A stretch of 64,000 bases of DNA from Methanotrichaceae archaeon (lineage in GTDB: Archaea > Halobacteriota > Methanosarcinia > Methanotrichales > Methanotrichaceae). The notes beneath the pieces were generated by a model. It saw only the letters and a program-made list of their open reading frames with translations. It was not told where the DNA came from and did no database searches. The DNA lies in assembly GCA_013178225.1 (NCBI GenBank), contig JABLXE010000011.1:1-64000 (forward strand), read 5' to 3'. The translations under genes and the position numbers were made by a program. Below, one piece after another: positions 38,624 through 42,569 of the stretch (its first letter is position 1; each line of letters opens with the position of its first letter).

Positions 38624-38998
38624 TCAAACCTGAGGCCATTTGGGCAGATGGTCAAACGGAGTGTACCAGAAGGTTCCATACCAGGCGTCAACGCCGAGAT
38701 GCCGTCCGCTGGTAGCTGTAACAGTGCAGGGTTGTGTGTAGTTGCAGGGCGCTGGTGGACAGTAATACGGCCAGCAGCAACAGCTGGAGCAAGACTTTTC
38801 CGCTTTGGTGGATATCACCGTATTTCTGGCATTGCTTCCGACGATCTCCAGATCAATAGAGCCTGCGGCAGGTGCGGCGATGCGAGTATCTTCGGTATTG
38901 CTTCCCACTATGTCTACCACTATCGATCCGTGGCCGGCAGCTAAGGATACGGACGATAGAGCCACAAACATCAATATGAATGTTATTGCCTTCTTCAA
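38624..38998 (-). CDS. Exported small protein with IVGS repeats and Cys cluster (paralog A)
   Basis: This 124-residue protein has a signal peptide (AITFILMFVALSSVSLA) and a TTG start behind GGGAGG. Two short repeats follow, VVDIVGSNTEDTRI and DLEIVGSNARNTVI, each about 15 residues. A Cys-rich stretch, CSSCCCWPYYCPPAPC, comes next, then an aromatic tail. The same plan occurs in the protein at 41354-41791, so the two are paralogs. The repeat resembles beta-arch repeats of amyloid-like surface proteins, but this is only a pattern comparison. No known family is recognised. Confidence 0.7.
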   Translation of the reverse strand: MKKAITFILMFVALSSVSLAAGHGSIVVDIVGSNTEDTRIAAPAAGSIDLEIVGSNARNTVISTKAEKSCSSCCCWPYYCPPAPCNYTQPCTVTATSGRHLGVDAWYGTFWYTPFDHLPKWPQV

Positions 38999-39151
38999 CC
39001 CTCTTTCCTCCCTTTCGATCTATAGTTAAGGCTTTTTATATATACTGAAAGTAGAAAAATCTTTCGCCCATTCTTTTGGAAGTCATCAGGACGGGCGGGA
39101 ATGTGAGGATGATTGCTGAGTCTCCCGTTTGGTCCCGAAGGAAACTCAGTC

Positions 39152-39610
39152 TCAGGATTTCGAAGGGCAGCTTACCAATATCGTCACCCGGTCTCCGTCA
39201 CTGAGGCCCAGGACCTCCCTGAGCTTTGCCGGAGCCAGGACCTCGATCACATCGCTGGGATAATGGGTTCTCTCTGGGATCACCACCGCCGCTGAAACGC
39301 CGGATATCCTTGCCGGGTAGCATCTGCTGGAGCCGTAGACGTGCTCACCCTGGACAAAGCCCTGGATAATGATTGCCTGACGCCTGTCCAGCTCTTCGCG
39401 ATGCCCCATGCTGGACGGATAGAGATGAACGTTGAGGGTCCCGGGGAAAGGTGAGAATCCCAGTTTCTCCTCAAACTGTCTCCGGTATCCGGGAATACTT
39501 ACGTAATGCTGCGCTTTTCCTGATCCCGGCAGGACCCTTCCCTCCAGCTGCAATGCTTTCAGCTCACGGTCTGCGCCTTTTGCCGTCGCTTTCCCCGGTC
39601 GCCTGTCCAT
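39152..39610 (-). CDS. ribK: CTP-dependent riboflavin kinase, archaeal
   Basis: A 152-residue DUF120-type kinase that makes FMN from riboflavin using CTP. The N-terminal strand region LQLEGRVLPGSGKAQHYVSI contains the nucleotide-binding GxGxA-like turn. FSPFPGTLNVHLYPSSM holds the conserved GTLNV motif, and YPSDVIEVLAPAKLREVLGL is the C-terminal family pattern. Many archaeal versions have an N-terminal winged-helix domain; this one is the kinase alone. It stands between unrelated genes. Confidence 0.93.
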   Translation of the reverse strand: MDRRPGKATAKGADRELKALQLEGRVLPGSGKAQHYVSIPGYRRQFEEKLGFSPFPGTLNVHLYPSSMGHREELDRRQAIIIQGFVQGEHVYGSSRCYPARISGVSAAVVIPERTHYPSDVIEVLAPAKLREVLGLSDGDRVTILVSCPSKS

Positions 39611-39829
39611 TCGTTGATCCCCTTTTCAGCCGAACCCTTCTCTCTTTTCCCGTTTTATCAGATTTCCGGAAGGAGACTCGGGGCTTTCCCGGATTCCTGG
39701 AGCGGCTCGGGGCGGGGAAAGTTTGGGTCAGGTGTGTTCGTTCGGGACGGACCGGTATGGATCGGTATTTATGTCCTAGCCCGGCTATTATTAATTGATA
39801 ATTTCTGGGATGGCAGGAGAGGTTTGACC

Positions 39830-40261
39830 GTGGTGGATGAGAATTGCATCAGGATCGATTTTGGACATTCGTGCGAGGAAGAGCCGGTGGTCGAGCTTTA
39901 CCGCTCGGGCGGCTGGTGGAAGGAAGATATGGACCCTTCCAAGATCGGTATGCTGATCTCCGGGAGCTATTTGTTTGCGGCTGCGATTGAGACCTCGACC
40001 GGCAGGTGCATAGGCATGGGGCGGGCGGTCTCGGATGGGGTAGCAGATGCCTATATCCAGGATGTGGTCGTTCTCTCCGGCTGGAGAGGGAAAGGAGTTG
40101 GAAGGATGATTGTGTCTGCGCTCCTGAAGCGTTGCCGGTCCGGGGGAATTTCGTGGATAGGATTGATTGCCCAGCCGGGAACAGAGGGATTCTACCGCTC
40201 GTTGGGTTTTTCGCCCATGGAGGGACACGTTCCCATGTTGCTCACGGGGGGAATTGATTGA
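39830..40261 (+). CDS. GNAT family N-acetyltransferase
   Basis: A protein of about 143 residues with the acetyl-CoA motif VVVLSGWRGKGVGRMIVSAL and the C-terminal GFYRSLGF strand and turn of GNAT enzymes. The start is uncertain. GTG at 39830 has GGAGAGG at good spacing; a TTG at 39824 is too close to it. A much longer open frame upstream is not supported. Its stop codon overlaps the TTG start of the next gene (TTGA), so the two are coupled. The acceptor substrate is unknown. Confidence 0.85.
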   Translation: MVDENCIRIDFGHSCEEEPVVELYRSGGWWKEDMDPSKIGMLISGSYLFAAAIETSTGRCIGMGRAVSDGVADAYIQDVVVLSGWRGKGVGRMIVSALLKRCRSGGISWIGLIAQPGTEGFYRSLGFSPMEGHVPMLLTGGID

Positions 40262-41172
40262 CGCTGAAAGACTCTGATTTCAAGCCGGTCGCTCTACAGG
40301 ACCGGGACCTATTCCAAAGACACTACCTGGCGTTTCCTCAGCAGCATAGCGATAATACTTTTGTCAATATGGTTTGCTGGAACCATTATGCCCACTATCG
40401 ATTCGCATTCGAGCAGGACTGCATCGTGCTCTCCAGCACCATCGATGGAAAAACCCGCTTTAGGCCGCCGATAGGTCCGCGAGATCCCGAACTGCTGGCT
40501 GAGGTGATGGAGCTTTCGGCAAGAAGCGATGATCCACATCCTTTGGTGATCCTTGATCCTGGGTCTTGGGAGTGGATCTCGGAGCTTTACCCGGGCCTGG
40601 AGCTTCATCCTGAGCGGGACTACTTCGACTACGTTTACCTGGCGTCTGAGCTGGCGGAGCTTCCCGGAAAAAAGTTTCAGACCATCCGGCATCAGTTAAA
40701 CCAGTTCCAGCGCCAGTGCTCTCCGGAAGCTATGCCGGTGAACGCCGACTGCATGGATGAAGTGCGCGAATTTCTGGAAAAGTGGTGCGAGTGGAAGGAC
40801 TGCGATTCTGAACCCATACTGGCCAACGAGAGGGAAGCTGTATTCTTTGCCATCGACCACTTCCAGTCGCTGCAATTGTCCGGGCTGGCCATTAGGGCAG
40901 AGGGACAGATCGGGGCCCTGTCCGTATTCGAGCGGTTAAACGAGAGCACGGCACTGGTTCACTTCGAGAAGGGCCTTCCTGATTGTAAGGGCATCTACAG
41001 GGCCATCAACGCCGAGACGGCCAGGTATCTGGCTCCGGATTATGTCTACATCAATCGGGAGAGCGACATGGGGGTAGAAGGACTGCGGGAAGCCAAGACG
41101 AGGTATCACCCCCATCATCTGGTGGAGGTGCACCTGGTGAAGAGGGACGATCTGGAAAGGCTGGTGCTGTAG
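40258..41172 (+). CDS. DUF2156 (phosphatidylglycerol lysyltransferase-like GNAT fold) protein
   Basis: A 304-residue protein of the DUF2156 family, with two GNAT-like halves. Recognisable parts are QQHSDNTFVNMVCWNHYAHY near the N-terminus, GKKFQTIRHQLNQFQRQ in the middle, and INRESDMGVEGLREAKTRYH near the end. The last motif is the family signature. Relatives transfer amino-acyl groups from tRNA to lipids or peptides, but archaeal members are uncharacterised. It is translationally coupled to the GNAT gene in front. There is no transmembrane region, unlike MprF. Confidence 0.85.
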   Translation: MTLKDSDFKPVALQDRDLFQRHYLAFPQQHSDNTFVNMVCWNHYAHYRFAFEQDCIVLSSTIDGKTRFRPPIGPRDPELLAEVMELSARSDDPHPLVILDPGSWEWISELYPGLELHPERDYFDYVYLASELAELPGKKFQTIRHQLNQFQRQCSPEAMPVNADCMDEVREFLEKWCEWKDCDSEPILANEREAVFFAIDHFQSLQLSGLAIRAEGQIGALSVFERLNESTALVHFEKGLPDCKGIYRAINAETARYLAPDYVYINRESDMGVEGLREAKTRYHPHHLVEVHLVKRDDLERLVL

Positions 41173-41353
41173 TGTCCCTTCGACGGCCGGATTTGATGGG
41201 ATCATCCGGGCCTAAATAAATGCCAAGGCTAACGAAGCTCTCCCGCGTTGGGTCGCAGGCCTTATTCTCCTGCTCTGGTGAGAGCCTCCTTTTAGCCCCG
41301 TGGCTATCGATGATGCCTTATCGATGTTGCCTATCGATTTACCTGCATCGAAG

Positions 41354-41791
41354 TTACCTGTATCCTCCAATGGATAGAACCTGATTGTCGATTTGCGGTG
41401 AGCAGGGGCTCCAGCACGGTGGAACGCACCCGCACGGCGTCCTTAGGAAGGATTTATGGTATCTGGTGGGGATGTAGGAGCTGTAGGGATAGCACAGGGA
41501 TCGGGAAAAGTCGGCCCATTCGTTGGGATAGCAGATGTTGCAGCAGCACGGTGCGTTCTTCTCGGCCAGAGGATTGCCGATCACGATATTGCTGGTCGTG
41601 CTCCCGACGATTGTCACCTCCACAGGCCTTCCACCGGGGTTGTCCACCTGAGCGTTCTCCGCCTGACTGCCTATCACATCCAGGGTCACGGTGCCATAAC
41701 CACTAGCGTAACCACTGCCGTAACCACTACCAGCGTACGCTGCAGAAGACCACAGCATAAGCAAGAGTCCTAACATGACTGCCCTTTTCAC
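41354..41791 (-). CDS. Exported small protein with IVGS repeats and Cys cluster (paralog B)
   Basis: A 145-residue protein with a GTG start (41791) behind GAAAGG, a signal peptide (AVMLGLLLMLWSSAAYAG) and then a Gly/Tyr/Ser-rich segment GSGYGSGYASGYG. Two repeats follow, VTLDVIGSQAENAQVD and VEVTIVGSTTSNIVIG. Then come Cys-rich stretches, CCCNICYP and CGCVPPCWSPC. It matches the layout of the protein at 38624-38998. It is probably a secreted or surface-bound protein, stabilised by disulfides or metal binding. Function unknown. Confidence 0.7.
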   Translation of the reverse strand: MKRAVMLGLLLMLWSSAAYAGSGYGSGYASGYGTVTLDVIGSQAENAQVDNPGGRPVEVTIVGSTTSNIVIGNPLAEKNAPCCCNICYPNEWADFSRSLCYPYSSYIPTRYHKSFLRTPCGCVPPCWSPCSPQIDNQVLSIGGYR

Positions 41792-41872
41792 CCTTTCGCC
41801 CCCTTTCGAGCAAAATTTGAACATTAGAAGGTATTAAAGGTAGAAAAACTTTTTGTGCTGGTATCTATCGTA

Positions 41873-42391
41873 TCACACCTTCGTCGCCTTGAACTTCCAG
41901 GACTCCAGGCCGGTCTTGATGAACTCGCCGGTCACGGTGTTCAGGCCCCAGAATTCGTTTTCATTGGTGCCGTACATCGATCCGGAGCTGCTAAGGATGC
42001 AGTTGATCCGCACAACCATGTAGACCGCAGAGCCGAGATCGTAGGTGCCCTCAAAGAGCGCCCCGTTTTCTGTGTACTGGCCGGCGATTGATCCGCTGCT
42101 GCCTGTCAGAACCGGGCCCTGGCCGTAGTCGGCGATGGTCCAGGTGTCGGGCTTGATGTCCCCCGGCTTTGGAGCATAGGGGTCGGCCGGATCTTCTGCC
42201 GGAGATGTCACCAGCTCGCCAAGCACGTCCCAGGTACCGATCACATCCTGGGGGCTGGCCCCGTCAGCACAGCAGATAGAGGCACCTGCACACGCAGCAA
42301 GGAGAAGCAGCAACGCGCTCAGGCCCGGCCGTTTCAAACTCTGATTCTTTGCCCTGGGTCCATTCATGTCATTCATGTTATTCATATTCAT
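41873..42391 (-). CDS. Exported protein of unknown function
   Basis: A protein of about 172 residues with an unusual N-terminus, MNMNNMNDMNG, followed by a signal peptide (SALLLLLAACAGASICCADG). The mature domain (DVIGTWDVLGELVTS to LESWKFKATKV) is beta-rich and looks like a lipocalin-like 'IGTW' fold: GTW near the start, a GQYTENGALFEGTYDLG middle. The Met/Asn start is made of repeated ATGAA-type units in the DNA, so the exact start among several ATG codons is uncertain. No function assigned. Confidence 0.65.
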   Translation of the reverse strand: MNMNNMNDMNGPRAKNQSLKRPGLSALLLLLAACAGASICCADGASPQDVIGTWDVLGELVTSPAEDPADPYAPKPGDIKPDTWTIADYGQGPVLTGSSGSIAGQYTENGALFEGTYDLGSAVYMVVRINCILSSSGSMYGTNENEFWGLNTVTGEFIKTGLESWKFKATKV

Positions 42392-42569
42392 GATTTCGTC
42401 CACCCCGAAGCCAAGTCGAAGCAAGTAATTGATCAAGCGTCGATCAAGTATTATTGATCAAGTATTAATCATGAGTGAGCTATCCGTGAAAAAGACAGCG
42501 GTATGAGGCCTACCCCAGGTCCCGCCGGGCCAAAACCGCGAGAATTCTTCTCCGGAGCGCTTTTTCTAT

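What the first reader, a model, noticed from the sequence alone, without database searches (positions are those of the whole stretch)
38624..41791. Paralogous exported proteins with duplicated IVGS repeats and Cys clusters
Two genes 2.4 kb apart encode a signal peptide, two 15-residue repeats of the form V-x-x-I-V-G-S-x-x-x-N-x-x-I, then a Cys-rich tail with a CCC core. The repeat looks like a beta-arch unit similar in spacing to curlin-type repeats. Methanothrix makes an amyloid-type sheath, so small repeat proteins could be minor sheath or surface components. No known family matched by eye.
Basis: partly seen in the sequence, partly recalled or inferred. Interest (0 to 1): 0.6.

Follow-up and report, generated by a model that had tools for sequence, protein, structure and literature searches.

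The report
Co-regulated archaeal surface protein pair
Two small exported proteins of an acetate-eating methane-maker (Methanothrix family) form an undescribed gene pair with a mini beta-coil, a cysteine-rich linker and a highly conserved tail, and both genes carry a promoter element found almost nowhere else in the genome, which suggests that they build one cell-surface structure together.

Summary
Both genes (A, 38624-38998; B, 41354-41791; minus strand) encode exported proteins with two tandem units of exactly 22 residues (not 15), a Cys/Pro-rich linker and a C-terminal motif. The motif is the most conserved part: HLGVDAWYGxFWY..PKWPQ in A, PWDDFxRPLCYPWSSYIPTRY in B. The CCC core is peculiar to this genome.

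No Pfam or NCBIfam family matches. Relatives occur only in Methanotrichaceae: A in 6 of 11 genera, B in two. dN/dS is 0.1-0.4.

Both genes share a 16-bp upstream element, AAAGRTTTTTCTACTT. In 50 family genomes it has 38 exact hits, 37 of them upstream of an A or B gene. This looks like a dedicated two-gene regulon.

Curlin membership fails. AlphaFold (low confidence) predicts three short strands per 22-residue turn, a mini beta-solenoid. The pair is absent from the M. thermoacetophila and M. harundinacea groups, which are sheath formers, so it is not a core sheath component.

Best reading, partly inferred: a co-expressed pair of disulfide-linked surface or accessory sheath proteins that dock through their C-terminal motifs.

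The parts
38624..38998 (-). gene A: exported 124-aa protein, TTG start (GGAGG 9 nt upstream)
   Evidence: orthologs; dN/dS 0.17-0.39
38861..38926 (-). gene A, coil unit 1 (22 aa: SIVVDIVGSNTEDTRIAAPAAG)
   Evidence: AF2 strands E8-13, E16-18, E21-23 of the mature chain
38795..38860 (-). gene A, coil unit 2 (22 aa: SIDLEIVGSNARNTVISTKAEK)
   Evidence: AF2 strands E30-35, E38-40, E43-45
38702..38794 (-). gene A, Cys/Pro-rich linker with CSSCCC
   Evidence: poorly conserved in length and Cys number
38627..38701 (-). gene A, C-terminal motif HLGVDAWYGTFWYTPFDHLPKWPQV
   Evidence: most conserved block of the family; also twice at the C-terminus of an unrelated CTDC-repeat protein
39049..39064 (-). 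upstream element AAAGATTTTTCTACTT of gene A
39034..39044 (-). TATA-like box TATATATAAAA of gene A, just downstream of the element
   Evidence: conserved in nearly all genus-g2 A promoters read
41354..41791 (-). gene B: exported 145-aa paralog, GTG start
   Evidence: orthologs; dN/dS 0.07-0.39
41627..41692 (-). gene B, coil unit 1 (TVTLDVIGSQAENAQVDNPGGR)
   Evidence: AF2
41561..41626 (-). gene B, coil unit 2 (PVEVTIVGSTTSNIVIGNPLAE)
   Evidence: AF2
41459..41518 (-). gene B, C-terminal motif WADFSRSLCYPYSSYIPTRY
   Evidence: most conserved block of the B family
41838..41853 (-). upstream element of gene B, AAAAGTTTTTCTACCT (one mismatch to AAAGNTTTTTCTACNT, two to AAAGRTTTTTCTACTT)

Best explanation
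A and B are a co-regulated pair of secreted structural proteins of the Methanothrix-type cell surface. Shown: signal sequence, two (in some genera three) 22-residue units, Cys-bearing linker, invariant aromatic C-terminal motif, purifying selection, family-restricted distribution and a shared promoter element specific to the pair. Predicted only: each unit is one turn of a mini beta-solenoid (three short strands). Inferred: the short solenoid ends stack on each other or on the edge of a surface beta-structure (accessory sheath, plug or granular layer); linker cysteines form disulfides, some of them between chains; the A and B C-terminal motifs dock to two different fixed partners. One regulator acting at the AAAGRTTTTTCTACTT element keeps A and B in step.
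For: Exported architecture conserved in A and B. 22-residue period in 49 of 52 pairs. Unit number 2 or 3 across genera, as expected of a modular solenoid. AF2 gives the same three-strands-per-22-residues layout for both families independently. A-B homology confined to the coil domain while the tails diverged and froze separately. The A tail recurs twice on a different exported Cys-repeat protein, so it behaves as a transferable module. B has three nearly invariant Cys and 7 of 24 B proteins have exactly 3 Cys, so at least one is free for an inter-chain bond. Element: 38 exact hits in 50 genomes, 37 lying about 30-125 bp upstream of A or B and one at a contig edge; control pattern 2 hits. B and A are adjacent in Methanothrix proper. 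Disulfides are known to matter for archaeal sheaths, and no accessory sheath proteins have been identified (PMC11576556).
Against: AF2 confidence is low (mean pLDDT 57 and 52; coils about 65-76) and Foldseek finds no PDB match. The pair is absent from sheath-forming relatives of the M. thermoacetophila and M. harundinacea types. Genome neighbours (ArsA ATPase, PAPS-reductase-domain protein, Tex) say nothing about the surface. No proteomic or expression data were found.
Confidence: 0.5

Rival explanations
1. Redox or metal-binding secreted proteins: the Cys pairs (CxxCG in B, CPxxICP-like in A) bind Zn or Fe or do thiol exchange outside the cell, and the coil is only a scaffold.
For: B has a nearly invariant CxxC-G plus a third conserved Cys. 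In Methanothrix the downstream neighbour is a PAPS-reductase-domain/4Fe-4S protein, a sulfur-handling type.
Against: Cys number and spacing vary widely (2-7 in A, 3-9 in B). Members with 2 Cys cannot form a four-ligand site alone. No Pfam or NCBIfam metal or thioredoxin family matches.
Confidence: 0.2
2. Ligand-binding or adhesion factors: the aromatic C-terminal motif binds a polysaccharide or partner cell, and the coil anchors the protein to the envelope.
For: The motif is rich in W and Y and is the best-conserved part. It occurs in tandem on another exported protein, as binding modules often do.
Against: No match to any known binding module. 25 residues is short for a carbohydrate-binding domain.
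Confidence: 0.2
3. Curli-type functional amyloid of archaea (CsgA/CsgB analogue with Methanothrix-specific tails).
For: 22-residue period, a conserved Asn seven residues after the core Ile as in curlin repeats, and a tandem pair of paralogs.
Against: PF07012 does not hit, no Gln ladder, hhalign at noise, only two or three units, and no csgG/E/F-like assembly genes seen in the conserved neighbourhood.
Confidence: 0.1

Closest known systems
Right-handed parallel beta-helix proteins (PF13229 Beta_helix / PF05048 NosD)
   Same: 22-residue turns with a GS..N..I core. The coil profile's best hit outside the family within Methanotrichaceae is a Beta_helix/NosD protein, L252 (E 0.0013 for one genome; hhalign score 29.5 against at most 18.6 in 60 shuffles; Pfam).
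   Different: Only 2-3 turns, no Pfam match to the window proteins, Asn one position later than in NosD repeats, and unique tails. The hit was picked after the fact from 50 genomes.
Curlin CsgA/CsgB (E. coli curli)
   Same: 22-residue repeat period, secreted, two co-regulated paralogs side by side.
   Different: No Curlin_rpt match, no conserved Gln, Cys-rich linker and a conserved C-terminal motif instead.
Archaeal sheath proteins (SH proteins; MspA of M. thermoacetophila)
   Same: Exported, beta-rich prediction, Cys available for disulfides, same family of organisms (literature: PMC11576556, PMC6242892).
   Different: SH proteins have a core of two six-stranded antiparallel sheets and occur in all Methanotrichales. 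A and B are about 100 residues when mature, with 22-residue coils, and are missing from several genera.

Membership tests
Curlin (PF07012) | match to the Curlin_rpt profile | tested here: not met
   no hit at A or B in 50 genomes, while the E. coli control rings
Curlin (PF07012) | S-x5-Q-x-G-x2-N-x-A-x3-Q repeat | tested here: not met
   no Gln ladder; hhalign E about 0.4 over 1-11 columns
Curlin (PF07012) | forms cross-beta fibres that bind ThT/Congo red | not testable with these tools
   needs purified protein
Archaeal SH sheath protein | core of two six-stranded antiparallel beta-sheets | tested here: not met
   three short strands per 22 residues, two units, disordered tail; models of low confidence
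Archaeal SH sheath protein | present in all Methanotrichales | tested here: not met
   28 of 50 family genomes
Archaeal SH sheath protein | physically part of isolated sheaths | not testable with these tools
   needs sheath proteomics
Right-handed parallel beta-helix | repeat of about 22 residues with one turn per repeat | tested here: inconclusive
   period met; three-strand turn predicted at modest confidence; no Pfam or PDB match
Archaeosortase-anchored protein | C-terminal motif followed by a transmembrane helix and basic residues | tested here: not met
   A ends in PKWPQ[IFVL] with no hydrophobic helix; by inspection

The most novel reading that the evidence does not exclude
A two-component extracellular assembly unique to Methanothrix-type methanogens: A and B co-polymerise through mini beta-solenoids (as CsgA and CsgB do in curli, but unrelated in sequence), are locked by disulfides, and are placed by a transferable C-terminal anchoring module that other exported proteins can borrow. 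Two-gene-specific promoter elements govern the pair; they would be the first accessory (plug, spacer or sheath-lining) proteins identified for the archaeal sheath.
Probability: 0.2. Interest if true: 0.75.

Novelty: new variant of a known kind. Interest (0 to 1): 0.5.

Why it matters
Methanothrix species are among the main acetate-consuming methane producers, and their envelope is poorly understood: the 2024 sheath survey could not link any accessory protein to sheath or plug formation (PMC11576556). This pair gives conserved, co-regulated candidates, present in what appears to be M. soehngenii GP6, so sheath proteomics and transcript data can test them directly. The promoter element also offers a rare two-site archaeal regulon in which to look for its regulator.

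Tried and rejected
Curlin membership: rejected. Viral origin or viral copies, tested because viruses of sheathed archaea carry SH-like proteins: no relatives in viral contigs. Larger regulon for the promoter element: with two mismatches, hits elsewhere equal the control. Fold look-up in the PDB: nothing significant. PDB sequence search gave a phage tailspike (a beta-helix type protein, from general knowledge) at E 1.1 and 0.63, plus mialostatin at 0.058 for B; none is evidence. B-type motif as an independent module: no significant hits. Relatives outside Methanotrichaceae: none in 190 further genomes of the class, none in a 393-genome phylum sample, and the motif scan of 84,980 species gave only Methanothrix/Methanotrichaceae-type records, including a few labelled only 'uncultured Methanosarcinales' or 'uncultured archaeon'. 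Bacterial-type promoters and terminators near the genes: at background. Literature for the pair or its locus tags: nothing found. Supplementary tables could not be opened. The weak hits in g10 genomes L253 and L254 are short ORFs of doubtful reality.

Full report
WHAT IS THERE. Two minus-strand genes lie at 38624-38998 (A) and 41354-41791 (B). Each encodes a short hydrophobic signal sequence, two tandem units with the core V-x-[VL]-[DE]-I-[VI]-G-S-x-x-x-N-x-x-I, a Cys/Pro-rich stretch and a tail. Between A and B in this genome lie three unrelated genes: CTP-dependent riboflavin kinase, a GNAT acetyltransferase and an LPG_synthase_C protein.

RELATIVES. Protein and profile searches find A in six of eleven genera of the same family and B in two (the window's genus and g2). 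In the A2 and A3 profile searches 28 of 50 family genomes match. No match was found in the remaining 190 genomes of the class, nor outside the family in a 393-genome phylum sample. A scan of 84,980 species for H[LF]GVDAWY returned 24 loci, nearly all titled Methanothrix, Methanosaeta or Methanotrichaceae, the rest labelled only 'uncultured Methanosarcinales' or 'uncultured archaeon'. G015 in genus g2 has a 3,008,626-bp chromosome, the size I recall for M. soehngenii/concilii GP6; g6 and g10 look like the M. thermoacetophila and M. harundinacea groups by size. These three identifications rest on my own knowledge, not on a tool. In g2 the order is ArsA-type ATPase (divergent), B, A, a PAPS-reductase-domain/4Fe-4S protein, and Tex in some. 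dN/dS among the closest pairs is 0.17-0.39 for A and 0.07-0.39 for B, so both are real genes under purifying selection.

WHAT IS CONSERVED. The CCC core is not: Cys number runs from 2 to 7 in A and 3 to 9 in B. The tails are conserved: HLGVDAWYGxFWY-x5/6-PKWPQ-[hydrophobic] at the very C-terminus of nearly all A, and Y-x-TPWDDF-x-RPLCYPWSSYIPTRY in B. A and B are homologous over the coil (55 columns, E 1.9e-17), so the duplicates kept the coil and acquired or diverged separate tails. The A tail occurs twice at the end of another exported protein made of Dicty_CTDC-type Cys repeats in two genomes (L083, L082), which marks it as a transferable module. In genera g3, g4 and g11, A has three coil units; in g9 they are degenerate.

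SHARED PROMOTER ELEMENT. Upstream of A stands AAAGATTTTTCTACTT followed after a few bases by TATATATAAAA; upstream of B in relatives stands AAAGGTTTTTCTACTT (the window's own B copy, AAAAGTTTTTCTACCT, has one mismatch to AAAGNTTTTTCTACNT). In the window the pattern with up to two mismatches occurs only at these two places, against 0.10 expected. In 50 whole genomes the exact pattern has 38 hits, against 2 for the reversed control. By coordinates 37 lie about 30-125 bp upstream of an A or B gene and one sits at a contig edge. All 37 distinct contexts with readable downstream sequence precede an A or B gene. With two mismatches the hits elsewhere do not exceed control. In genera g9, g11 and, less exactly, g3 the A gene carries a different gene-specific element, AATTTAATTAANNTTAAATGNTAAAA. 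I infer a dedicated regulator or promoter type. Placement upstream of a TATA box is clear for A; for B in this window the TATA box is not clear.

STRUCTURE. AlphaFold2 with 26 and 24 natural homologs gives low overall confidence (mean pLDDT 56.6 and 51.5), but the same result for both families: in each 22-residue unit one strand of six and two strands of three residues, pLDDT about 65-76. Tails and linkers are disordered or uncertain. Foldseek finds nothing significant in the PDB. The coil profile's best outside hit within the family is a Beta_helix/NosD protein, suggestive of a mini right-handed beta-helix; it was picked after the fact.

HOW IT PROBABLY WORKS. Shown: export signals, modular coil, tail conservation, selection, pair-specific promoter element. 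Predicted: coil as beta-solenoid. Inferred: solenoid ends stack, linkers cross-link by disulfides (B has three near-invariant Cys, so an odd number in members with exactly three), the tails dock A and B to separate partners, and co-regulation keeps stoichiometry. The likely place is the cell surface between membrane and sheath or on the sheath. Sheath literature supports a role for disulfides and lists no accessory proteins (PMC11576556; PMC6242892; PMC10593813). Absence from two sheath-forming groups argues that it is an accessory or lineage-specific part.

COMPARISON. It works perhaps like curli or like SH proteins in being a beta-rich extracellular building block, but it is a member of neither: PF07012 does not match, repeat comparison with CsgA/CsgB is noise, and SH cores differ in fold and distribution. 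No Pfam or NCBIfam family claims it (NCBIfam was run on the A family only). It is a new lineage-specific family, filed as a new variant of the known kind 'small exported beta-repeat surface protein'.

Noticed in passing
window 39049-39064 and 41838-41853 (-): Shared 16-bp upstream element of A and B, almost exclusive to this gene pair in all Methanotrichaceae genomes searched; possible two-site archaeal regulon.
   Followed up: yes
L083 4731-5669 (+) and L082 2126-2551 (+): Exported protein with Dicty_CTDC-type Cys repeats (CDDGNPCTxDxCGPxGC) that ends in two copies of the A-type DAWYG...PKWPQ tail; a domain-swap of the tail.
   Followed up: partly
G010, G008 and (with two mismatches) G002, upstream of gene A: A different conserved gene-specific element, AATTTAATTAANNTTAAATGNTAAAA, replaces the AAAGRTTTTTCTACTT element; among eight genomes seen elsewhere only once, in G002.
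   Followed up: partly
L084 6090-10254 and equivalents in genus g2: Conserved neighbours of the B-A pair: a divergent ArsA/GET3-type ATPase and a PAPS-reductase-domain/4Fe-4S protein; link to the pair unknown.
   Followed up: no
window 41873-42436 (-): Small exported protein (GTWDVLGELVT...) without Pfam match directly upstream of gene B.
   Followed up: no
genus g2 A genes (e.g. L003, L005, L062, L067): Very consistent use of TTG start codons with a strong GGAGGGG ribosome site in the A family.
   Followed up: no
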